Positions 2-11,677 of a stretch of DNA of 64,000 nucleotides are shown here, one piece after another. Below the pieces are notes generated by a model. The model was not told where the DNA came from. It saw only the letters and a program-made list of their open reading frames with translations, and searched no databases. This DNA comes from Mameliella sp. MMSF_3455 (GTDB lineage: Bacteria > Pseudomonadota > Alphaproteobacteria > Rhodobacterales > Rhodobacteraceae). The number at the start of each line of letters is the position of its first letter. The first letter of the stretch is position 1. The stretch covers positions 1 to 64,000 of the forward strand of contig NZ_JASHJL010000026.1 of assembly GCF_030733205.1 (NCBI RefSeq), in the 5' to 3' direction. The position numbers and the translations under genes are program-made.

Positions 2-37
2 GCGGGGCTGCCGCTGGCGCTGGGGGGCGGGACATGA
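2..37 (+). CDS. 3' end of an upstream gene (partial)
   Basis: Frame 2 is open from the left edge and ends at TGA 35-37; only about eleven codons (ending ALGGGT) are visible. Its stop overlaps the ATG at 34-36 of the next gene as ATGA, the same coupling used further down this operon. The product cannot be identified from this stub, but it is probably the preceding member of the same transcript. Confidence 0.5.
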   Translation, partial: AGLPLALGGGT

Positions 38-2478
38 AGGGGGTGATCCCGGCGGACAGGGCGCTGGACCCGCAAGAGGTGGGCGGCAAGGCCGCCGCCT
101 TGTCCCGTCTGAAAGCGGCGGGTTTTGACGTCCCCGGGTTCCTTGTCCTGGCCGACGATGCCTTCACCGATCATGGCACAGACTTGGCTGAGACCGTCAC
201 CGGCGCGTTGCCAGACGCGTTGGCCGCGCTTGGGCCGGGGCCTTTTGCGGTGCGGTCCTCGGCGCGAGCCGAGGACGGGGCCGAGGCCAGCCATGCCGGA
301 CAGTTCGACACCGTTCTGAATGTTCCCGCCTGCGGGATCGCGGCGGCGGCGGCGCAGGTGCGCGCCTCGGGCGAGGCAGAGCATGTCGCGCGCTACCAGG
401 CCGACCGTGGCGTGGACGATAGCGGCCTTCCGGCGGTCCTGGTGCAGTGCATGATCGCGGCGCGGACAGCCGGGGTTGCCTTTTCCGCCGACCCGGTCAG
501 CGGGCGGCGGGATCTTTGCGTTGTGTCCGCGGTAGAAGGACTGGCCGACGCGCTGGTCGGCGGAGAGGTGAACGGCGAAAGCTGGACGGTCTCACCCGAT
601 GGCGTCATCGATGCGCCGGAGCCGCCCGAGGTCCTGACGCCGCAAGAGGCCACCGAGGTCGCCGAGCTTGCCCGCCGGGCCGAGGCGGCGTTTGGTGCCC
701 CGCAGGACATCGAATGGGCCTACGATGGCGCGCGGCTGCACCTGCTGCAATCCCGTCCGATCACCACCGATCTGCGCCTCGCGCCCAGGCCGGACGCGGC
801 GCTGGTGGTTCTGGACAATTCCAACATCGTCGAGAGCTATCCCGGCCTCGTCAGCCCGCTGACCTACAGTTTTGCCGCCTATTGCTACAACCGCGTCTAC
901 CGCGCCTTTGTCCGCCTGCTGGGCCTGTCCGAGGCGCAGATCGCCGAAAATGCCGCCGTCTTCGACAACCTGCTGACCCGCATCGACGGGCGGGTCTACT
1001 ACAACTTGGGAAACTGGTATCGCGCGCTGGCGCTCTTGCCCGCATTCTCGCTCAACCGGGGTTACATGGAAACCATGATGGGCGTCGAGGAATCGCTGCC
1101 CGCAGAACTCACGGACAGGCTGGCCCCGGACCCGGCGCGCGGTTGGCAAAAGGTGTCGGCGTTCTTGGCGCTGGGGCGCGTTGCGGGTGGTCTGGCATTC
1201 GAAGCCATGCGGCTGGGCCGGACCCGGCGGCATTTCCTGGCGCGGCTGCAATCCGCGCTGGACGAGGGGGCCGACACCGATGGCGCCAACCTGACCCAGC
1301 TCGCCGCGCTCTACCGCCGGATCGAAGGCCGGTTGCTGGATCGCTGGGACGCGCCTCTGGTCAACGATTTTCTCTGCATGATGGGGTTCGGCGCCTCGCG
1401 TGCGCTGTTGAAACGATGGGCCGGGGAGGCGGGCGAGAGTTTCCACAACGACGTCATGATCGGACAGGGCGGGATTGTCTCGGCTGAACCCGCCCGGCGC
1501 ATCGCCGCGATGGGCCGCATGGCGCGCGAAACGCCGGGCGCCCAAGAGGCGCTGGGGCAGGGGCGGCCTGCGCTGAGGGATTTTCCCGACCTCGATGCCG
1601 CCGTTGCTGCCTACCTTGACGAATTCGGGGATCGCTGCACCGAGGAGTTGAAGCTCGAAAGCCTGCCGCTGTCGGAAGCCCCCGCGCCGCTGCTGGCCGC
1701 AATTGCCAGTGCCGCCCGCCGGTCCGATGAACCGCAGGCCCGCCGCAGCGCCCCTGACTGGCACAGGCTTTTCCCGGGCCAGCCGCTGCGCCGTGCCGTG
1801 GCGCGCGCCCTGACAGGCTGGGCTGCCGCCCGCGTGCGCGACCGCGAGAACCTGCGGTTTGAACGGACGCGCATCTTTGCCCTGGCGCGGCGCTGTTTCC
1901 TGGCGATGGGGCGCGAGTTCCACGCCCGAGGTCTGCTGGACGCACCGCGCGACGTGCTGTTCCTGACCGTGCCCGAGGTCATGGGCACCATCGAGGGCAA
2001 TGCGCCGGGCGACGACCTGCGTGCCCTCGCCGCCATGCGCAAGGGTGAGGCAGAGGCCAGCGAAAACCGGCCCGCACCCCCCGAACGGATCGAACTGCGC
2101 GGACCCGTGGGCGCCTATCGTCCTGCACCGGCGGCGTTCCCGGAAACCGAGGGTGGCGATGGCCGCACCGGGACGGGCTGTTCCAAGGGCAAGATCACCG
2201 GGCGGGCCCGTGTCGTGCGCGATCCGCGCCGCGAAATGCTGGAACCGGGAGAGATCCTCGTGGCGTCGAACACGGACCCGGGATGGATCGCGCTGTTCGC
2301 TGGCGCGGCGGCGATCGTCGTGGAACGTGGTTCGCTCTTGTCGCATTCGGCCATCGTCTCGCGCGAGATGGGCATTCCCTGCGTCGTGGGCATCCGTGAC
2401 GCAACCCGATGGTTGCGGACCGGTGACCTGATCGAGGTGGATGGCGGCACCGGAGAGGTCAGGAAACGCGATGGATGA
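34..2478 (+). CDS. PEP/pyruvate-binding dikinase-type phosphotransferase, rifampin-phosphotransferase-like
   Basis: Cytoplasmic 814-aa protein. Residues about 15-240 form the ATP-grasp (PPDK N-terminal) domain, with GGKAAALSRLK near residue 18 and FAVRSSARAEDG near 70. A long middle region of about 500 residues follows. The C-terminal 100 residues are the swivelling phosphohistidine domain, with LLSHSAIVSRE and catalytic His771. The TIM-barrel PEP-binding domain of PEP synthase/PPDK is absent, so the order ATP-grasp, middle, His domain is that of rifampin phosphotransferases. The family passes the beta-phosphate of ATP through the histidine to an acceptor. The acceptor here is unknown and probably binds the middle domain. 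The gene overlaps both neighbours (ATGA upstream, 8 nt downstream). Phosphotransferase chemistry is likely; antibiotic resistance is not implied. Confidence 0.8.
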   Translation: MKGVIPADRALDPQEVGGKAAALSRLKAAGFDVPGFLVLADDAFTDHGTDLAETVTGALPDALAALGPGPFAVRSSARAEDGAEASHAGQFDTVLNVPACGIAAAAAQVRASGEAEHVARYQADRGVDDSGLPAVLVQCMIAARTAGVAFSADPVSGRRDLCVVSAVEGLADALVGGEVNGESWTVSPDGVIDAPEPPEVLTPQEATEVAELARRAEAAFGAPQDIEWAYDGARLHLLQSRPITTDLRLAPRPDAALVVLDNSNIVESYPGLVSPLTYSFAAYCYNRVYRAFVRLLGLSEAQIAENAAVFDNLLTRIDGRVYYNLGNWYRALALLPAFSLNRGYMETMMGVEESLPAELTDRLAPDPARGWQKVSAFLALGRVAGGLAFEAMRLGRTRRHFLARLQSALDEGADTDGANLTQLAALYRRIEGRLLDRWDAPLVNDFLCMMGFGASRALLKRWAGEAGESFHNDVMIGQGGIVSAEPARRIAAMGRMARETPGAQEALGQGRPALRDFPDLDAAVAAYLDEFGDRCTEELKLESLPLSEAPAPLLAAIASAARRSDEPQARRSAPDWHRLFPGQPLRRAVARALTGWAAARVRDRENLRFERTRIFALARRCFLAMGREFHARGLLDAPRDVLFLTVPEVMGTIEGNAPGDDLRALAAMRKGEAEASENRPAPPERIELRGPVGAYRPAPAAFPETEGGDGRTGTGCSKGKITGRARVVRDPRREMLEPGEILVASNTDPGWIALFAGAAAIVVERGSLLSHSAIVSREMGIPCVVGIRDATRWLRTGDLIEVDGGTGEVRKRDG

Positions 2479-3562
2479 CAGGGGGATCGACCAGCGCGCC
2501 TCGTTCGAGGGCATCCGCTATGCCCAGGCCTGGGAGGACGCCGATGTCCTGACACAGGCGATGGGCGAGGTGTCGGGGGGCGATCTGGTGGCGGTCTGTT
2601 CCTCGGGTGACAATGCGCTGGCGCTGCTTCTGAACGATCCGGCGCGGGTCTTTGCCGTCGATATTTCGCCGGCCCAGATCGAATGCCTGAACCTGCGCCT
2701 GGGCGCCTACAAGGCCCTGACCCACGCAGAGTTCCTGGAACTGATGGGCGCACGCCACAGCACCCGGCGGGCCATGTTGCTGGCCCGGGCCTTGTCCGAT
2801 GCGCCGGGCCATACGCGCACCTTCTGGACCGCGCTGACACCGCAGGTCGAGGCGCATGGCGCGGGCGGTTTGGGCAAGTTCGAGGGCTATTTCCGCATGT
2901 TTTCGCGCTACCTGCTGCCTTTGGTGCACAGTCGCGCGACCATCGACGCGATTTTCCAGCCCCGTGACCGTGCCGCGCGCGAGGTCTTTTTCGACAGGCG
3001 GTTCAACACCTGGCGCTGGCGGCTGTTGGTGCGCGTGTTCTTTTCGCGCGCGGCCATGGGGATGCTGGGCCGCGATCCGGCCTTTTTCGAACATGTCCGG
3101 GGCAGCGTGGCCGACCATGTCTTTTCCCGCCTGCGTCACGCAGGCGTGGACACGGACCCGGCGCAGAATCCCTATCTGCACTGGATCATGAAACGCTGCC
3201 ACGGCACCGCGCTGCCCTTGCCCTGGCGGGCAGAAGCCTATGAGGTCATCCGGTCACGACTGGACCGGATCCAGCCGGTGCAGGGCACGGCAGAAGAGTT
3301 GAACCTTGACGGCGTTGCGGGGTTCTACCTGTCCGACATCTTTGAATACATGTCGCCCGAGCTGGCCGCGCAAGTCTATGGCACCTTTCTGGACATGGCG
3401 CGGCCCGGGGCGCGCCTGGTTTACTGGAACATGATGGCACCGCGCCGCGTGCCGCCCGCGCTTGCCAATCGCGTCACGCCGCTGAGCGGTCTTGAATCCC
3501 GGCTGAAGGCGCAGGACATGGCCTTTTTCTATTCCGATTTCGTGGTCGAAGAGGTCGGATGA
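2471..3562 (+). CDS. DUF3419 / BtaA-like SAM:lipid 3-amino-3-carboxypropyltransferase
   Basis: A 363-aa protein; ATG 2471 is preferred over the in-frame 2441 because the latter lies well inside the upstream gene and adds no domain. The SAM-binding fold is visible as VCSSGDNALALLL (CSSGDN at residues 43-48) followed by the acidic end of strand 2, FAVDIS (Asp64). FYLSDIFEYM and MARPGARLVYWNM near the C-terminus match the DUF3419 family. The best-known member is BtaA, which moves the aminocarboxypropyl group of SAM onto diacylglycerol in betaine-lipid synthesis. No BtaB-like N-methyltransferase is seen next to it, so the product may be a different ether-linked or amino-linked compound. Coupled to the dikinase by an 8-nt overlap and to the next gene by ATGA. 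Confidence 0.75.
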   Translation: MDDRGIDQRASFEGIRYAQAWEDADVLTQAMGEVSGGDLVAVCSSGDNALALLLNDPARVFAVDISPAQIECLNLRLGAYKALTHAEFLELMGARHSTRRAMLLARALSDAPGHTRTFWTALTPQVEAHGAGGLGKFEGYFRMFSRYLLPLVHSRATIDAIFQPRDRAAREVFFDRRFNTWRWRLLVRVFFSRAAMGMLGRDPAFFEHVRGSVADHVFSRLRHAGVDTDPAQNPYLHWIMKRCHGTALPLPWRAEAYEVIRSRLDRIQPVQGTAEELNLDGVAGFYLSDIFEYMSPELAAQVYGTFLDMARPGARLVYWNMMAPRRVPPALANRVTPLSGLESRLKAQDMAFFYSDFVVEEVG

Positions 3563-4887
3563 GTATCCTTTGGCAATTGGCACTGGCGCTGGGGCTGATC
3601 ATGGGTCTTCTGGGCATCATGTCGGTCCTGTCGCGCGTGGCGCGCCGGGGCGACTGGCACCCGGAGCTGGCGCGCAAGATCGTGCATGTCCTTGCCTCGG
3701 GGCTGGCCATTCCATTGCCCTGGCTGTTCGTGGACGATTGGCCGGTCTGGCTGGTTCTGGGGCTGGCCCTGGTGGCGATGGTGGCCATGCGCACCCCGCT
3801 GCTGGCGGGGCCGGGCCGGGCGCTGCACTCGGTCGCGCGCAAGTCCTGGGGCGACGTGCTGCTGGTGGTCTCGGTGGGTCTGTTGTTCCTGCTACAAGGC
3901 GCGCACCCGGTGCTTTATGTCCTGCCGCTCTCCGTGGTTGCGCTTGGCGATGCCGCCGCCGCGCTGGCGGGCAGCGCCTATGGCCGCACCTTCTACCTGA
4001 CGCCCGACGGCCGCAAGAGCGTCGAGGGCAGCACCATGTTCCTGCTGGTCACGCTGATCCTTGCCATGATCTGCCTGCTGCTTCTGACCGACATGGGGCG
4101 CGGTGAACTGATCCTTGCCGCTTTCTGCATCGCGGTCTTCGCCACGGTGATCGAGGCGGACAGTTGGGCCGGACTGGACAACCTGTTCCTGCCGATGGGC
4201 GTCTACCTGTTTCTTGTCAATTTCTACGGCTGGCCGGACACGGGCGGGATGCCGCGGCTGGTGGCGGCGGCCTTGGCCATGCCGCTGGCCTACGGGATCA
4301 GCCTTGCCTCCGGAGCCTCGGGGCAGATCGCCCGGATCCACGCGGTGGCATTGTTCATGATCCTTTGCGCCGTGCACGTCTGGAACGCGGTCCTGCCGGG
4401 GCTGGTGTTGTTGGGGCACGCGCTGCTTTCTGCCCGGCAAAAAGAGGACGCGACCGATCGGGGCGCGCTGAACGTGGTGACAGGGCTTGCGGCGGTCAGC
4501 TTTGCCTTTCTTGCCATCGACGTGCCCTGCGGCGCCAGTGGGATCAGCTTTTACGGCATCGGTTGCGCCGCGATTGCCGCCGGGCTGGTGTCACAGGGCC
4601 TTCCGGAAATGACGCGTCCAATTCGTCTGGGCGCGGCATTGGCGGCCTGCGTCACGCTCTGGCTGCTCTGGGTCCTGCTTGGGGACCTGAACGCCGCCAG
4701 CATGGCCTGGCACGCGGGGCAGGAGGTGCAGGCGGCGGCACTGATCCTGCTGGCGGGTCTCTTGCCGCAGGTCTGGCCCGGGCTGTTCCAACGTGGCGCG
4801 GAATTCCGGATCACCGTGCTTGGGGCGCTGCCTGCGCTGTGTCTTTATGGCGGCAACTGCCTGCTGAACGGGGGAGCGGGGGCATGA
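3559..4887 (+). CDS. Phytol/dolichol-kinase-like (CTP-dependent lipid kinase) membrane protein with C-terminal membrane extension
   Basis: A 442-aa very hydrophobic protein. Residues about 35-170 carry the signature of the SEC59/VTE5 (dolichol, phytol, CTP-diacylglycerol kinase) family: ELARKIVHVLASG at 36-48, a GD pair at 130-131 followed by small residues, and GRKSVEGS at 151-158. These enzymes phosphorylate a lipid alcohol with CTP at the inner membrane. Family members usually stop near 200-300 residues. Here residues about 240-442 add roughly six further predicted membrane segments, which I do not recognise. ATGA overlaps at both ends place it firmly in the operon. The lipid substrate is not evident. 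Confidence 0.65.
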   Translation: MSILWQLALALGLIMGLLGIMSVLSRVARRGDWHPELARKIVHVLASGLAIPLPWLFVDDWPVWLVLGLALVAMVAMRTPLLAGPGRALHSVARKSWGDVLLVVSVGLLFLLQGAHPVLYVLPLSVVALGDAAAALAGSAYGRTFYLTPDGRKSVEGSTMFLLVTLILAMICLLLLTDMGRGELILAAFCIAVFATVIEADSWAGLDNLFLPMGVYLFLVNFYGWPDTGGMPRLVAAALAMPLAYGISLASGASGQIARIHAVALFMILCAVHVWNAVLPGLVLLGHALLSARQKEDATDRGALNVVTGLAAVSFAFLAIDVPCGASGISFYGIGCAAIAAGLVSQGLPEMTRPIRLGAALAACVTLWLLWVLLGDLNAASMAWHAGQEVQAAALILLAGLLPQVWPGLFQRGAEFRITVLGALPALCLYGGNCLLNGGAGA

Positions 4888-5732
4888 CGAAACAACTGTG
4901 CGAGGGCGCCGGTGCGCGCGCCAACCTGTATCCTGAAGGGCCGGAGTGGGAGGGCGCGCCAACCGCCACCATCGGCGAGTTCAGGTGCGACAGTGCCGAG
5001 GCTGGCGCCGCGCTGCTGCGGTCGATCTGCGACGAGGTCAGGGCCAAGGGCAAAAACCGCGTCCTGGGACCGATGAGCGGGGACACCTGGCACAGCTACC
5101 GCCTTGTGACCGAAAGCGATGGCACCCCACCTTTCCTGATGGAACCGCAGAGCGGTCCGCATGACCTCGCCGCCTTCGAGGCCGCCGGTTTCAGCCCGGT
5201 CTCGCGCTATGTCTCGGCCCGCGTGGCGCCGGAGGCGGGCATCGGCCCGGACCCCGTTCCCATTCCCGGCATCAAGATTGCGAATTGGGACGGCAGCGCG
5301 GCCGAGGCACATTTCGCCGAGGTTCATGGGCTGTCGACCCGCGCCTTTGCCGGCAACGCCTTTTATCAACCGATCGGACTGGAGGCCTTCCTGGCGCTCT
5401 ATACGCCCTTTGTGCCGCTGCTGAAGCCCGAGCTGATCTTTACCGCCCGTGACGAGGATACCGGGGCGCTAGTAGGCTATCTGTTCGGGATTCCGAACTA
5501 TGGACATGGGGCCAATCCCGACACGGTGATCCTGAAGACCTATGCCAGCCTGCGACCCGGGCTGGGCCATCACCTTGCGCATGCCTTTCACGTCCGGGCG
5601 CGCGAACTGGGCTATGCGCAGGTGATCCATGCGCTGATACACGAGGACAACGCCTCGGCCGATCGCAGCCGCCGTCACGGCGGAGAGGTCTTTCGCCGCT
5701 ACGCGCTGATGGGCCGTATTCTGGATGACTGA
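4884..5732 (+). CDS. GNAT-like N-acyltransferase domain protein
   Basis: A 282-aa protein; start ATG 4884 overlaps the preceding stop (ATGA). An open frame extends about 240 codons upstream but lies entirely inside the lipid-kinase gene. The C-terminal half shows a GNAT-like core: a strand with GALVGYLFGIPNYG, then the turn LRPGLGHHLAHAFHVRARELGY, which resembles the acyl-CoA pyrophosphate loop and following helix, and a conserved-looking VIHALIHEDNASADRSRRHGG. The N-terminal half may be a second, degenerate GNAT lobe. Expected role: transfer of an acyl group from CoA to an amine. The adjacent AMP ligase could supply the acyl-CoA. The substrate is unknown. Confidence 0.55.
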   Translation: MTKQLCEGAGARANLYPEGPEWEGAPTATIGEFRCDSAEAGAALLRSICDEVRAKGKNRVLGPMSGDTWHSYRLVTESDGTPPFLMEPQSGPHDLAAFEAAGFSPVSRYVSARVAPEAGIGPDPVPIPGIKIANWDGSAAEAHFAEVHGLSTRAFAGNAFYQPIGLEAFLALYTPFVPLLKPELIFTARDEDTGALVGYLFGIPNYGHGANPDTVILKTYASLRPGLGHHLAHAFHVRARELGYAQVIHALIHEDNASADRSRRHGGEVFRRYALMGRILDD

Positions 5733-7143
5733 CCTCGCGCGGCGCTTTTCCCGGGTCGCGGCGGAACAGGGCGACCGCACCGCGCTGATCACTCCGACAG
5801 AGCGCGTCAGCTTTGCCAAACTGGAGCGCCGCGCCAGCGGTTTCGCCGCCACCTGCGCCGCGCGCGGTCTTGGCAAGGGCGACCGGGTGCTGATCGCCAT
5901 GCCCGTCGGCGTCGATTTATATGTCGCTTTGGCCGGGTGCTGGCGGCTAGGGGCGGTGGCCGTCTTTCCGGAACCGGCGATGGGCCTTCGGGGGCTGCGC
6001 CATGCCGTGGCGGTGACAGGGCCGAAAGTCCTTCTGGCCAGCGGTCTCTATCGGCTGATCGGCCTGCTGCCTGCGCTTTGGGGTTGTCCGCGGCTGGCGC
6101 CCGCGCGCTCGGACCGGGGGCAGATGCCGGCGGTGGACCTCACCCCGGAAGACCCAGCCCTGATATCCTTTACCTCCGGGTCTACCGGCGCGCCCAAGGC
6201 GATCCCGCGCAGTCACGGCTTCCTGACTGCGCAGTTTCAGGCGGTGCGTCAGGTGCTGGCCACCGATCACGCGGAAACCGATCTTGTCGCCTTTCCCGTC
6301 TTTGCGCTGGTCAACCTGGCCGAGGGGCGCCCAACTGTGCTGCCCGACTGGAAACTGACCCGTCCCGAAAAGGTCACCCCCAAGGCACTGTCGGGCTGGA
6401 TCCGGCAGACGGGAGCCACCCGGGCCCTGCTGCCGCCCGCGCTGTGCGAGACATTGGCGGGGGCGGAGTTCCCCCAGGCGCTGCACAGCGTCTTTACCGG
6501 CGGCGGTCCGGTCAAACCTGCGCTTGTGGACCGTTTGCAGAACTCTGCTCCGGGGCTGCGGGTGGTTTCTGTCTACGGCTCGACAGAGGCAGAGCCGATT
6601 GCCGAACTGGACTGGACCGATGTCGGCGCAGAGGATCGCGCCGCGATGGCCGAGGGCGCCGGGCTGCTGACCGGGGCGCCGGTCCCGGGGACGCAGGTGC
6701 GCATCGTGGCGGATGAGATCCAGGTGGCCGGCGCGCATGTCAACGGGCACTACCTAGATCCGTCGCAGGAAACCGGCACCAAGATCCGCGAGGGCGCGAC
6801 GGTCTGGCACCGGACCGGCGATGCCGGGCGGCTGGACGGGCAGGGGCGGCTCTGGCTTCTGGGGCGGAGCGATGCGGTTGCACAGGGGCGCGACGGGCCG
6901 CTCTATCCCTTTGCGGTCGAACTGGCCGCCGAAAGCTGGCCGGGCGTTTCCCGCGCCGCCCTGCTTTCCGGCGATGGCGGGCCGCTGCTGGTCTACGAGG
7001 GTACGGCGGACCCCGTGGATTGCGCCGCCAAGGCCCGCGCGCTGGGTCTGGCCGATGCGCGTCGGGTTGCGGCCATCCCGCTGGACCGGCGGCACCGGTC
7101 CAAGGTCGACTACACGGAACTGCGCAGGCTGGTGAGCCGCTAG
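5725..7143 (+). CDS. AMP-dependent acyl-CoA/acid synthetase (ANL superfamily)
   Basis: A 472-aa adenylate-forming enzyme that should activate a carboxylic acid as acyl-AMP and pass it to CoA or another thiol. Visible motifs: the P-loop-like TSGSTGAPKA at residues 150-159, YGSTE at 284-288, the hinge region HRTGDAGRLDGQGRLWLLGR, and a near-terminal lysine in RSKVDY that matches the usual catalytic Lys. It is somewhat shorter than long-chain acyl-CoA ligases (about 550) and resembles the single-function ligases of biosynthetic clusters. The ATG overlaps the GNAT-like gene by 8 nt. Its TAG overlaps the stop of the convergent deacetylase gene, so the operon ends here. Confidence 0.8.
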   Translation: MTDLARRFSRVAAEQGDRTALITPTERVSFAKLERRASGFAATCAARGLGKGDRVLIAMPVGVDLYVALAGCWRLGAVAVFPEPAMGLRGLRHAVAVTGPKVLLASGLYRLIGLLPALWGCPRLAPARSDRGQMPAVDLTPEDPALISFTSGSTGAPKAIPRSHGFLTAQFQAVRQVLATDHAETDLVAFPVFALVNLAEGRPTVLPDWKLTRPEKVTPKALSGWIRQTGATRALLPPALCETLAGAEFPQALHSVFTGGGPVKPALVDRLQNSAPGLRVVSVYGSTEAEPIAELDWTDVGAEDRAAMAEGAGLLTGAPVPGTQVRIVADEIQVAGAHVNGHYLDPSQETGTKIREGATVWHRTGDAGRLDGQGRLWLLGRSDAVAQGRDGPLYPFAVELAAESWPGVSRAALLSGDGGPLLVYEGTADPVDCAAKARALGLADARRVAAIPLDRRHRSKVDYTELRRLVSR

Positions 7144-8694: not shown

Positions 8695-9437
8695 GAGCTT
8701 GCTCCGTGGATGCGGGTTACAGAGAGCAGCGCCGCGAGGCGCGCCGGGTCGATGTTGTAGAAATCGCCCGGCAGGTTGATGCCGGTGGCGACAAGGAAGC
8801 AGTTCACCGCAGCGCGGTAGCGAGGGGCGTTGTCCGGCGTGATGCCGGAGGCCAGCGCCAAGGGGGCAGTTCCCAGCGCGCTGCGGAAGGTCTGGATCTT
8901 GGACAGGTCGGCCTCTTGCCCGGTGGCGATGCCGGAGGTGGTCACCACGTCCATGTAGCGGGCGGCGATCCGGGCGGCGGTGGCATGCATCTCCGGTGGC
9001 ACCGGGCGCTGTTTCTTGAAGGCGACGCCGCCGAAATACAGCCCTTGCCAGCCACTGTTGGCGCGGATGCGGGCGATGCGCGCGGCCTCTGCCTGATCCT
9101 GCGCGGTTTCGTCGATCCGCGCATCGTCTGCCCAGTAGGCCTGAAACTCGACACCCTCGCGCGCGAGTTCCGCCAGCACTGGAAATGCCAGGTCGCCGGG
9201 TTGGTCCAGGAAGTTGACGCCCAGCCAGGCCCGGGGGCGCGCGGCCCTGATCTGCCTGAGGATTGGCAGGAAGGGCGCCATCGGGAAATCATGGTTGATC
9301 AGAAAGACCCCGGGACAGCCCGCGTTCAGTGCAATGTCGATGTTCGCCAGCGCCTGGTCACGGTCTAGGACGTGGATGACGGGGGTCACGATGGGGCCCG
9401 GTCCGGTTAGCAACTGTCCAAAATCTGGGCAGGTCAT
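8691..9437 (-). CDS. BtpA/SgcQ-like TIM-barrel protein
   Basis: A 248-aa protein with an alternating beta/alpha pattern: PVIHVLD, GVFLINHDF, WLGVNFLDQ, FQAYWADD, LYFGGVAFKK, DVVTTSGIATG, PLALASGI and NCFLVATGI are successive strand ends. The phosphate-binding-like ending (LASGITPDN, then VATGI) and the overall order resemble BtpA/SgcQ-type barrels. Some of these are linked to nucleoside or ribose-phosphate metabolism. The family call is tentative and no catalytic residues are assigned. First gene of the minus-strand group, divergent from the LysR gene with about 97 nt between the start codons. Confidence 0.5.
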   Translation of the reverse strand: MTCPDFGQLLTGPGPIVTPVIHVLDRDQALANIDIALNAGCPGVFLINHDFPMAPFLPILRQIRAARPRAWLGVNFLDQPGDLAFPVLAELAREGVEFQAYWADDARIDETAQDQAEAARIARIRANSGWQGLYFGGVAFKKQRPVPPEMHATAARIAARYMDVVTTSGIATGQEADLSKIQTFRSALGTAPLALASGITPDNAPRYRAAVNCFLVATGINLPGDFYNIDPARLAALLSVTRIHGASS

Positions 9438-9534
9438 GCCATCATCTCCCGTATTTCAGACAGAAGCTATGAAACCGCCCGGCATATGAAAAATTTATAG
9501 TCCTAATGTCTGCATAAGGTTGGCCTATGTGCGC
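9438..9534. promoter_or_regulatory. Divergent promoter region, BtpA-like group / lysR
   Basis: The 97 nt between the two divergent starts must hold both promoters. It is AT-rich compared with its surroundings. TTAT 9495-9498 and ATAA 9514-9517 form a weak interrupted dyad of the kind LysR regulators use. No exact -35/-10 is claimed. Confidence 0.35.
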
Positions 9535-10413
9535 ATGGCCACCAACATCCCGACCGACCTTCTTCGCAGTTTCGTCACCGTCGTCGACCTTGGCGGCTTT
9601 ACCCGGGCTGCGCAGGCGCTGGGGCGAACTCAACCCGCCATCAGCCTGCAGATCCGGCGGCTGGAGGAGCTTTTGCAGACCAAGTTGATCCGTACCGCCG
9701 GACGGCAGTTTGCGCTGACGGATGCGGGCGTGGCGCTGGGACCCTATGCGCGCCAGATGCTGCGGCTGAACGACGATATCGTGGCGCATTTCGGCGATCG
9801 GGCGCTGTCGGGGCGCATCCGTGTCGGCGTGCCGACGGACTTCGCTCATAGCTTTCTGTTGGAGGCGATTGCGGATTTTGCGGTGACACATTCCGAGGTC
9901 AACATCGAGATCGAAAGCCTGTTGTCCAGCGGACTGCGCACGGCACTTGCCGCCGATACGTTGGATATCACCGTGGCCGTGGTGCCCGAGGGCGATGTGC
10001 GCTACCTCGTCGAAAGCGCGCTGGTCGAACCCTTTTGGGCGGTCAAGGACAGTTTCCACCTGGACCCCAGGGCGCCCTTGCCGATCCTCTGTCACCCGGA
10101 GCCTTGTGAATATGCCAGCCGGATGCGCAACGCATTGCGTCTTGCCGGGCGCAGCTGGCGGACCGTGCTGCTGTCCCGGGACGTGGCCGGTTTGCAGACG
10201 GCGGTGCGCGCCGGGCTGGGGGCCACGGCACTGACCCCCGCGACATTGCTGCCGGGGATGCGGGTCGGCCGCCCGGACGAGGGTTTTCCCCAGTTGGCGC
10301 CCCTGCGCATCGGTCTGTTCTACAAGCATGCGACGCTGAGCGGGGCCGGCCACGGGCTGGCGCAGCACCTGCTGGAACATATCCAGGGATCGCGGTCAGC
10401 GGCCAAAACATAA
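9535..10413 (+). CDS. LysR-family transcriptional regulator
   Basis: A 292-aa regulator. The N-terminal winged helix-turn-helix is clear (LLRSFVTVVDLGGFTRAAQALGRTQPAIS region, then IRRLEELL), followed by the periplasmic-binding-protein-like co-inducer domain starting near GRIRVGVPTDFAHSFL. ATG 9535 is preferred; a TTG at 9520 in frame would add five residues. Divergent from the BtpA-like/PRTase/deacetylase group and upstream of an ABC importer, so it probably controls one or both. Confidence 0.9.
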   Translation: MATNIPTDLLRSFVTVVDLGGFTRAAQALGRTQPAISLQIRRLEELLQTKLIRTAGRQFALTDAGVALGPYARQMLRLNDDIVAHFGDRALSGRIRVGVPTDFAHSFLLEAIADFAVTHSEVNIEIESLLSSGLRTALAADTLDITVAVVPEGDVRYLVESALVEPFWAVKDSFHLDPRAPLPILCHPEPCEYASRMRNALRLAGRSWRTVLLSRDVAGLQTAVRAGLGATALTPATLLPGMRVGRPDEGFPQLAPLRIGLFYKHATLSGAGHGLAQHLLEHIQGSRSAAKT

Positions 10414-10432
10414 GCCATCCTAATGCGACCAT

Positions 10433-10457
10433 ACCAACTGGAAATTTCCCAGTTGGT
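10433..10457. promoter_or_regulatory. Perfect 9-bp inverted repeat upstream of the ABC importer (operator candidate)
   Basis: ACCAACTGG (10433-10441) and CCAGTTGGT (10449-10457) are exact reverse complements separated by AAATTTC. There is no T-tract, so a terminator for the lysR gene is less likely than a protein-binding site. It lies about 90 nt before the ATG of the solute-binding protein. Confidence 0.45.
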
Positions 10458-10549
10458 CCAATCTGCTCATAGGCTGTGCACCAGATCGCTTTGGCCGCAA
10501 CTCCGCGGATCGGGCGGCGGACAACAGACCAGACCGACACGGAGGTTCC

Positions 10550-11677
10550 ATGACCAGATCGACCTTTACCCTTTCGCGGCGGCGCCTCCTTGCCGGGGCA
10601 GCGGGTGCCGCGCTGACGACGCCGATGATCAACCGCGCCTGGGCCGCGGACCCGGTGCAGATCAACATGCTGGCCTGGTACGGCCATGCCGAGCCGGACA
10701 TCGTGGCCGAGTTCGAGGCCGCCAACAACGTCAAGTTCGTGCCGAAATACTATGCAGGAGGCGACAACATGCTGGGCCTGATCGCCCAGTCTCCTCCGGG
10801 TACATATGACCTGATCCTGTCGGATGCCGAGTTCGTGCAACAGTTGAACATGGCCGGCTACATCGAGGAAATGGACCCCAGCCTATACCCTTTCGACGAC
10901 TTCTGGCCAGAATACCAGAAGTTCCCCGGCCACTGGACCGACGACCAGCTTTGGTCGGTGATGGTGCGGTTCGGCCTGCTGGGAGTGTCCTACAACTCGG
11001 ACGTGATGACCCGCGAAGAGGCGATGAGCTACAACGCCTTCTGGAATCCCAAGATCACCGGCAAGCTGGGCCATTTCGACTGGCACTTGCCGTCGCTCGG
11101 CCAGATCTCGCTGTTGAACGGCAACCGCGACCCGTCGCCCTTCGACATTTCCGAGGACGCCTGGGAGGCGGTCATGGAAAAGACGCTGAGCCTGAAACCG
11201 CAGGTCGGCGGCTACTTCGATTACGGCGGCACCTTTGCCAGCCTCAAGAACGGCGAGATGCTGGCGATGGCGGGCATCGGCGACTGGATCACCGGTGTTC
11301 TGCAAAAGGACGGTGCTCCAGTGGCGAGCGTGATCCCCGAAGAGGGCGGCATCCAGTGGACCGAGAGCTATTCCATCGGCAAGGGCACGACCAAGCATGA
11401 GATCATCAACAAGTTCATCAACTACATGCTGAGCCCCGAGGGACAGGTGAAGTCGATCAAGATGGCCGCTTACCCGGGTCTTTCGCCGCTGAAATCCGGC
11501 TGGAAGGCCATCCAGGAGGCAGATCCGGCCGAGGCCAAACGCTCGGGCCTGATCGAAGGGGACGACCAGTCGCCGATCAAGCTGCTGTCCGAGGGCCGGC
11601 TCTTCTTCCGCGACATCCCGCGGCAGCAGGACCTCGAGGACTGGAACGATTTCTGGTCCGAGTACAAGACCGCCTGA
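10550..11677 (+). CDS. Polyamine-type ABC importer, periplasmic solute-binding protein (PotD-like)
   Basis: A 375-aa protein with a Tat-type signal peptide: SRRRLLAG near residues 9-16, a hydrophobic stretch, then cleavage near NRAWA. The mature part follows the spermidine/putrescine-type binding fold (QINMLAWYGHAEPDIVAEFE, YDLILSDAEF, IGKGTTKHEIINKFINYML). It starts an operon of binding protein, two permeases, ATPase and a CodA-like deaminase, so the ligand is probably a small cationic or nitrogenous compound that the deaminase processes. GGAGG at 10541-10545 sets the start. Confidence 0.85.
   Translation: MTRSTFTLSRRRLLAGAAGAALTTPMINRAWAADPVQINMLAWYGHAEPDIVAEFEAANNVKFVPKYYAGGDNMLGLIAQSPPGTYDLILSDAEFVQQLNMAGYIEEMDPSLYPFDDFWPEYQKFPGHWTDDQLWSVMVRFGLLGVSYNSDVMTREEAMSYNAFWNPKITGKLGHFDWHLPSLGQISLLNGNRDPSPFDISEDAWEAVMEKTLSLKPQVGGYFDYGGTFASLKNGEMLAMAGIGDWITGVLQKDGAPVASVIPEEGGIQWTESYSIGKGTTKHEIINKFINYMLSPEGQVKSIKMAAYPGLSPLKSGWKAIQEADPAEAKRSGLIEGDDQSPIKLLSEGRLFFRDIPRQQDLEDWNDFWSEYKTA

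What the first reader, a model, noticed from the sequence alone, without database searches (positions are those of the whole stretch)
2..7143. Six-gene overlapping operon of dikinase, BtaA-like transferase, lipid kinase, GNAT and AMP ligase
Six frames overlap by 4-8 nt, so the products should be made in fixed ratios. Seen directly: phosphohistidine dikinase domains, a DUF3419 SAM-binding fold, SEC59/VTE5 motifs, a GNAT-like fold and ANL motifs. Known: BtaA moves aminocarboxypropyl to diacylglycerol, VTE5-like enzymes phosphorylate lipid alcohols with CTP, and ANL enzymes activate acids. Inferred: together they could build a new phosphorylated, N-acylated, aminocarboxypropylated lipid or a soluble lipid-linked metabolite. 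I know of no described pathway with this set.
Basis: partly seen in the sequence, partly recalled or inferred. Interest (0 to 1): 0.78.

Follow-up and report, generated by a model that had tools for sequence, protein, structure and literature searches.

The report
Travelling seven-gene cassette for unknown lipid
The window holds the last five genes of a seven-gene block that is found almost always intact in distantly related bacteria and probably builds an undescribed membrane lipid, using among others an altered relative of the enzyme that statin drugs inhibit in people.

Summary
Window 34-7143 carries five complete overlapping frames (dikinase-like, DUF3419, SEC59/VTE5-like by motif, GNAT-fold, AMP ligase) and the last 36 nt of a sixth. 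The contig ends there; another contig of the same genome supplies the start, and the operon has seven genes: an HMG-CoA-reductase (HMGR) homologue and a UbiA-like protein come first. All seven match in 71 of 80 related loci (Rhodobacterales, Hyphomicrobiales, Sphingomonadales, Halomonas and others), in one order in 70 of 71; the other nine run into a contig end, and one of these also lacks the ligase. Few neighbours recur, and the Halomonas copies group with Chelativorans, so the block travels as a unit. Nine cassette genomes tested have the MEP marker Dxr and no mevalonate kinase over cut-off, and the HMGR homologue has an acidic residue where HMG's carboxylate is normally bound (70 of 70), so it probably does not make mevalonate. 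Most likely reading: a cassette for an undescribed amino-ether lipid in which the HMGR homologue reduces another acyl thioester to an alcohol. Ten paper searches listed no description of this gene set.

The parts
2..37 (+). 3' end (last 12 codons with stop) of the UbiA-like gene; the rest is on contig C66 (1-858, minus strand) of the same genome, behind the HMGR-homologue gene (C66 858-2114, minus strand)
34..2478 (+). dikinase-like protein, 814 aa: PPDK_N (ATP-binding) + long middle region + C-terminal PEP-utilizers mobile (phospho-His) domain; no PEP/pyruvate barrel match
2471..3562 (+). DUF3419 (BtaA-like SAM-dependent) protein, 363 aa
3559..4887 (+). nearly all-helical membrane-type protein, 442 aa, SEC59/VTE5-like motifs (K-S-x-E-G, D-N-L-F-L-P) in the N-terminal half, extra helices in the C-terminal half
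4884..5732 (+). GNAT-fold acyltransferase-like protein, 282 aa
5725..7143 (+). AMP-forming ligase (ANL family), 472 aa, nearest curated models PRK09274 and OleC-type, below their cut-offs

Best explanation
The five genes are the downstream part of a self-contained, horizontally moving seven-gene biosynthetic cassette (HMGR homologue, UbiA-like, RPH/PigC-type dikinase, DUF3419, SEC59/VTE5-like, GNAT, AMP ligase) that makes an undescribed membrane-anchored amino-ether lipid. Shown: gene set, order, overlaps, conservation, co-transfer, intact catalytic residues, MEP genome background. Inferred mechanism: DUF3419 puts the 3-amino-3-carboxypropyl group of SAM on a hydroxyl of a lipid or prenylated acceptor supplied with the UbiA-like protein; the AMP ligase activates a carboxylate (this one or a fatty acid) and the HMGR homologue reduces the resulting thioester to a primary alcohol; the GNAT N-acylates the amine (the seven conserved genes include no BtaB-type methyltransferase); the SEC59/VTE5-like and dikinase-like proteins phosphorylate hydroxyls. 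The result would be a ceramide-phosphate-like amino-alcohol lipid. In 17 of 80 copies a P450 + sulfotransferase pair would decorate it. The confidence below is for the lipid cassette with a repurposed HMGR; the exact step order is worth about 0.15.
For: tblastn matches to all seven genes in 71 of 80 loci, same order and strand in 70 of 71 (in three of the 71 an end gene runs off the contig: HMGR in L033 and L105, ligase in L085); the one rearranged locus (L096) still keeps all seven. Few flanking families recur. Pairwise distances of the seven proteins correlate at 0.73-0.94 over 60 loci (no control for shared descent was run), and Halomonas copies group with Chelativorans at support 1.0. HMGR homologue: E559, R590, D690, K691, K692, H752, N755, D767 and H866 equivalents kept in 70 of 70; S684 equivalent is E in 69 and D in 1; K735 equivalent is A in 69 and G in 1 (human numbering recalled). 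No mevalonate kinase over cut-off in 11 of 11 genomes, 9 of which carry the cassette (one weak match in G012, 62 bits against 163; weak matches rang in 13 of 14 control genomes, over cut-off in 5); Dxr over cut-off in 9 of 9 cassette genomes. HMGR homologue of L019 at 320 bits against the 441.8 cut-off of the HMG-CoA reductase equivalog. The window's genome has a second DUF3419 gene between a phosphoesterase and a methyltransferase gene, resembling plcP-btaA-btaB (PMC4796936 passage), so the cassette copy (25% identity) is probably not the betaine-lipid gene. Motif residues of dikinase, ligase, UbiA-like and SEC59-like proteins almost invariant. P450 + sulfotransferase together in 17 of 80.
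Against: No product or activity is known. The acidic residue at the S684 position also occurs in eight solo HMGRs of one unnamed genus, so that change is not tied to the cassette; the one solo enzyme scanned also scores below the same equivalog cut-off (347 bits), so the cut-off says little about the cassette itself. The K735 position is changed as well in six other bacterial HMGRs, five of which keep S684: it is not diagnostic. The role of the UbiA-like protein is not explained well by the proposed steps. The SEC59/VTE5 label has no profile or fold support. Ligase and GNAT substrates are unknown, so the order of steps is guesswork. Of the mevalonate pathway only mevalonate kinase was sought.
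Confidence: 0.45

Rival explanations
1. Mevalonyl tailoring: the HMGR homologue does make mevalonate; the ligase activates it and the GNAT transfers mevalonyl to an amine (for example the amine installed by DUF3419), as SidI and SidF do in fungal siderophores (recalled).
For: Explains HMGR, ligase and GNAT together; R590, K691, K692 and D690 equivalents are kept; no mevalonate kinase needed.
Against: S684 equivalent replaced by Glu/Asp in 70 of 70 and K735 equivalent by Ala/Gly in 70 of 70; score below the HMGR equivalog cut-off.
Confidence: 0.15
2. Prenyl salvage or prenylation: the SEC59/VTE5-like and dikinase-like proteins phosphorylate a prenol stepwise to a diphosphate which the UbiA-like protein transfers to an acceptor made by the other enzymes; the main product is a prenylated small molecule or quinone-like compound.
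For: UbiA passes Pfam gathering score and keeps all three Asp of the first motif in 64 of 64; known polyprenol and polyprenyl-phosphate kinases prefer CTP and work in two steps (PMC9782597 passages); terpene-oxidising P450 models are the nearest to the accessory P450, below cut-off.
Against: The second Asp-rich motif is replaced by E-x-G-R-K and a later Glu (motif recalled); leaves DUF3419, ligase and GNAT unexplained.
Confidence: 0.15
3. Soluble secondary metabolite: the cassette makes a diffusible signal or metallophore rather than a membrane lipid.
For: Patchy distribution (strong DUF3419 match in 9 of 61 genomes, the window's own included) and horizontal movement are usual for secondary metabolism. 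An ABC transporter ATPase family occurs within the fetched flanks of 19 of 80 loci, but at no constant place.
Against: Two membrane-type enzymes (UbiA-like and the helical protein) and a BtaA relative are in every locus with all seven; no transporter, regulator or receptor is among the seven.
Confidence: 0.2
4. Chance neighbourhood of unrelated genes.
For: None found.
Against: 70 of 71 loci with all seven keep order and strand, across two classes by record title.
Confidence: 0.01

Closest known systems
Betaine-lipid (DGTS) pathway BtaA/BtaB
   Same: DUF3419 protein that should move 3-amino-3-carboxypropyl from SAM to a lipid hydroxyl (function recalled)
   Different: No methyltransferase other than the DUF3419 protein among the seven conserved genes; 25% identity to the DUF3419 paralogue that does sit beside a methyltransferase gene in the same genome
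Class I HMG-CoA reductase (PDB 6hr7, 1dq8)
   Same: Fold family and catalytic residues
   Different: Carboxylate-binding Ser and Lys replaced; MEP genomes without mevalonate kinase over cut-off
Rifampin phosphotransferase / PigC-RedH ligases / PEP synthase
   Same: ATP-grasp domain, middle region, C-terminal phospho-His domain
   Different: Below the curated cut-off of all 25 families shown of 27; acceptor unknown; no PEP barrel match
Bacterial ebo cluster (EboC UbiA-like)
   Same: Portable conserved set with a UbiA-like protein and unknown product (recalled)
   Different: The other six cassette genes belong to other families (recalled); UbiA-like scores 29.7 bits against the EboC cut-off of 250
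Fungal siderophore SidI/SidF branch
   Same: Mevalonate, acyl-adenylate and GNAT logic (recalled)
   Different: Bacterial, membrane-type enzymes present, HMG site changed

Membership tests
HMG-CoA reductase | PF00368 over gathering score | tested here: met
   375.4 bits against 27 in L019
HMG-CoA reductase | catalytic Glu, Lys, Asp, His | tested here: met
   70 of 70 cassette proteins
HMG-CoA reductase | Ser684 and Lys735 that hold the HMG carboxylate (recalled) | tested here: not met
   E/D and A/G in 70 of 70; pairwise alignment with 1dq8
HMG-CoA reductase | NCBIfam equivalog cut-off (TIGR00533) | tested here: not met
   320.2 against 441.8 bits in L019
Mevalonate pathway | mevalonate kinase in the genome | tested here: not met
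   0 of 11 genomes over the cut-off, 9 of them with the cassette; one weak match in G012
BtaA | DUF3419 domain | tested here: met
   166.9 bits against 28.2
BtaA | BtaB-type methyltransferase beside it | tested here: not met
   not among the seven conserved genes; the four commonest further neighbour families apart from P450/sulfotransferase are ABC transporter parts and a short-chain dehydrogenase
BtaA | aminocarboxypropyl transfer to a lipid hydroxyl | not testable with these tools
   needs assay
UbiA prenyltransferase | PF01040 over gathering score | tested here: met
   45.1 against 34.2 bits in L019
UbiA prenyltransferase | two Asp-rich motifs (recalled) | tested here: inconclusive
   first kept in 64 of 64; second changed to E-x-G-R-K
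PEP synthase | PEP/pyruvate-binding barrel | tested here: not met
   only PPDK_N and PEP-utilizers found
RPH/PigC-type phosphotransferase or ligase | ATP-grasp, middle domain, C-terminal phospho-His | tested here: met
   domain order; His in 63 of 64, gap in 1
RPH/PigC-type phosphotransferase or ligase | curated cut-offs | tested here: not met
   all below among the 25 shown of 27 families
SEC59/VTE5 lipid-alcohol kinase | family profile or fold match | tested here: inconclusive
   no relevant Pfam match among 48 aligned members; no PDB match at E <= 0.001, CdsA 4q2g at E 1.4; no VTE5/SEC59 profile was on hand
SEC59/VTE5 lipid-alcohol kinase | K-x-x-E-G and D-N-x-x-x-P motifs (recalled) | tested here: met
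   K, E, D, N and P in 70 of 70
GNAT | GNAT fold | tested here: met
ANL AMP-forming ligase | PF00501 and ATP-binding motifs with C-terminal Lys | tested here: met
   72 of 72
OleC beta-lactone synthetase | NCBIfam equivalog cut-off | tested here: not met
   161.5 against 900 bits

The most novel reading that the evidence does not exclude
A new lipid class: sphingolipid-like amino-alcohol ether lipids built not from serine but from the aminocarboxypropyl group of SAM, whose carboxylate is reduced by an HMG-CoA-reductase homologue with an acidic, amine-holding pocket, then N-acylated and phosphorylated; the genes spread between bacterial classes as one block.
Probability: 0.12. Interest if true: 0.92.

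Novelty: new variant of a known kind. Interest (0 to 1): 0.7.

Why it matters
HMG-CoA reductase is the statin target (recalled); a clade that has probably left HMG-CoA would be a new activity for a famous fold. An almost inseparable seven-gene block shared by many Rhodobacterales and scattered other bacteria points to an undescribed membrane lipid, and it makes several unassigned families (DUF3419 outside betaine lipids, dikinase-like ligases, SEC59-like bacterial proteins) testable in one pathway. It also warns that an HMGR annotation in MEP bacteria need not mean a mevalonate pathway.

Tried and rejected
Rejected: PEP synthase (no barrel match); betaine lipid pathway (no methyltransferase in the set beyond DUF3419, and another DUF3419 gene with a methyltransferase neighbour in the genome); isoprenoid supply by mevalonate (only mevalonate kinase and Dxr were sought); chance neighbourhood.

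Led nowhere: a phylum survey with the GNAT profile gave 20 of 398 genomes, 19 of them weak matches over part of the profile; 4 such regions were fetched and 3 were read, where I recognised no cassette gene from the printed protein starts. Survey with the membrane-protein profile: only the own genome, 1 of 200. HMGR survey: 36 of 398 genomes; in 14 fetched neighbourhoods (one only 4,620 bases long) the only cassette-type match besides HMGR was a PEPS-like gene in L171. Search for an empty site in two genomes of the window's genus without the cassette: the amidohydrolase gene found downstream of the cassette is present but in other surroundings, so no clean site. Ten paper searches listed no description of the set; only listings, several of them capped (15 of 84, 15 of 3,026, 12 of 27 and 10 of 25), were seen, except passages of PMC9782597 and PMC4796936. 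The library lacks most subscription papers, so absence there is weak evidence.

Limits: my gene caller fails on low-GC loci (seven of 80 loci got fewer than five genes), so cassette counts use tblastn and the flank survey is incomplete. 114 relatives were found, but only the best 80 were returned; the other 34 were not seen. Gene starts are partly uncertain, so unusual overlaps there are not interpreted. The alignments for the two structure models hold the window protein plus 48 of 73 (GNAT) and 47 of 72 (membrane protein) called relatives: members of similar loci, odd-length ones and a few more were left out. Conservation counts leave out proteins of unusual length; one search used 60 of 80 loci. 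The 70 HMGRs leave out L033 and L105, whose HMGR runs off the contig.
Full report
What is in the window. Five complete genes lie head to tail on the + strand at 34-7143 with overlaps of 8, 4, 4 and 8 nt, and the window's bases 2-37 hold the end of a sixth gene that overlaps the first by 4 nt. Pfam assigns PPDK_N and PEP-utilizers to the first protein, DUF3419 to the second and AMP-binding to the fifth, all over gathering score; the third and fourth have no match. The window starts at base 1 of contig C31 of its assembly.

The missing start. In eight related genomes the operon begins with two more genes: a 419-aa HMG-CoA reductase homologue (375 bits in L019, Pfam) and a 301-aa UbiA-like protein (45 bits, cut-off 34). 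In the window's own genome both lie at the end of contig C66: HMGR homologue at 858-2114 and 286 residues of the UbiA-like protein running off the contig end. The window's 2-37 is the tail of that UbiA-like gene. So the operon has seven genes.

How far it is conserved. A scan of one genome per species (84,980 species) with the GNAT protein found 114 relatives, of which the best 80 were returned. Record titles name mostly Rhodobacteraceae or their kin (Mameliella is nearest), with Bosea, Chelativorans, Devosia, Rhizobium, Sphingomonas, Marinicaulis, two Halomonas and a Granulosicoccaceae assembly. 71 of 80 loci match all seven genes by tblastn and 70 of these 71 have one order and strand; L096 is rearranged but has all seven; in three of the 71 an end gene is cut by the contig end (HMGR in L033 and L105, ligase in L085); in the nine incomplete loci the cassette runs into a contig end on its 5' side, and one of them (L106) also lacks the ligase although 8 kb follow. 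Besides the seven, the commonest neighbour family is an ABC transporter ATPase near 19 of 80 loci, at no constant place; apart from the P450 and sulfotransferase families, a short-chain dehydrogenase family follows near 9 (the flank survey misses most genes of seven loci where my gene caller failed). A P450 gene and a sulfotransferase gene occur together in 17 of 80 loci, facing away from the cassette in 16 and behind it in L071. A plasmid of Roseinatronobacter sp. S2, the only plasmid record found, also carries the set, with HMGR cut by the record start. Protein distances of the seven genes correlate at 0.73-0.94 over 60 loci (without a control for shared descent), and the Halomonas copies sit beside Chelativorans at support 1.0: the block appears to move as a unit between classes. 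Among 61 genomes (the own one, its genus, family and class) a strong DUF3419 match (62% identity or more) occurs in 9, including 4 of the 6 genomes of the window's genus; weak matches raise the number to 13.

The HMGR homologue. Its best PDB match is 6hr7 (an archaeal enzyme, recalled), ahead of human 1dq8. Among 70 cassette proteins the residues equivalent to human E559, R590, D690, K691, K692, H752, N755, D767 and H866 are invariant, while S684 is replaced by E (69) or D (1) and K735 by A (69) or G (1) (residue roles and numbering recalled). Eight solo HMGRs from one unnamed genus of the same phylum, 48-54% identical to the cassette protein, have D/E and T/N there; six further HMGRs have S (five) or A (one) and A or S. 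So the acidic residue marks a clade wider than the cassette, and the loss of K735 is wider still. Genome background: mevalonate kinase over the cut-off in 0 of 11 genomes, of which 9 carry the cassette, with one weak match in G012 (weak matches also rang in 13 of 14 controls, over the cut-off in 5); Dxr of the MEP pathway over cut-off in 9 of 9 cassette genomes. The enzyme is therefore unlikely to serve isoprenoid supply, and its substrate is probably not HMG-CoA. A Glu in place of the carboxylate-binding Ser would suit an amine; that is inference.

The other parts. The dikinase-like protein has ATP-grasp, a long middle region and a C-terminal phospho-His domain, without a match to the PEP/pyruvate barrel; its nearest curated models include PEP synthase-like, RedH, PigC and rifampin phosphotransferase proteins, all 25 shown below cut-off; the His is kept in 63 of 64, gap in one. 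The DUF3419 protein is 25% identical to the genome's other DUF3419 protein, which sits between a metallophosphoesterase and a methyltransferase gene, resembling the plcP-btaA-btaB arrangement described for Phaeobacter (PMC4796936, passage). The 442-aa membrane-type protein has invariant motifs that I recall from dolichol/phytol kinases (70 of 70), but no profile or fold match supports the label. The GNAT protein's model (pLDDT 93.9) matches tandem GNATs such as 7q3a and mycothiol synthase. The ligase keeps the P-loop Lys, the Glu of YGSTE, the Asp of TGD and the C-terminal Lys in 72 of 72. The UbiA-like protein keeps the first Asp-rich motif in 64 of 64, but its second is E-x-G-R-K.

How it may work. 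See the best explanation: SAM-derived aminocarboxypropyl ether formation, activation and four-electron reduction of a carboxyl group, N-acylation and phosphorylation on a prenyl- or acyl-anchored core. Only the gene set, its conservation, its transfer and the residue patterns are shown; every reaction is inferred from families. Rivals are mevalonyl tailoring, prenol phosphorylation and transfer, and a soluble metabolite.

Novelty. Ten paper searches listed no paper that describes this set; several listings were capped and the library is incomplete. The families are known, the combination and the product are, as far as these searches show, not. I call it a new variant of a known kind (lipid-type biosynthetic operon), with a more novel reading kept open.

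Noticed in passing
L164-L171 (HMGR matches near 9,800-11,100 or 8,800-10,100): Solo HMGR homologues in eight genomes of one unnamed genus (by genome shape perhaps Vibrio, a guess) share the acidic residue at the S684 position; they too may not make mevalonate.
   Followed up: partly
L049, L067, L070-L072, L075, L078, L079, L082, L084, L086, L088, L089, L091, L094, L098, L104: P450 and sulfotransferase genes always occur together beside the cassette (17 of 80), divergent from it in 16 and behind it in L071; L026 keeps only a 66-residue sulfotransferase-like match upstream.
   Followed up: partly
L018:596-3277 (G000:C16): A metallophosphoesterase - DUF3419 - methyltransferase set, resembling plcP-btaA-btaB, in the window's genome.
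   Followed up: yes
L026:6297-7558: The HMGR homologue of this copy matches in two overlapping pieces, which may mean a frameshift or a sequencing error.
   Followed up: no
L179 (NZ_CP121116.1 120627-136713): Cassette on a 137-kb plasmid of Roseinatronobacter sp. S2, reaching the record start.
   Followed up: partly
window:7140-9437: Minus-strand polysaccharide deacetylase, phosphoribosyltransferase and BtpA-like (just under cut-off) genes abut the cassette in the window and in G005 but not in the other two cassette genomes of the genus.
   Followed up: partly
L096: The only locus with all seven genes in a changed order (dikinase, DUF3419, membrane protein, UbiA-like, GNAT, ligase, HMGR homologue).
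   Followed up: no
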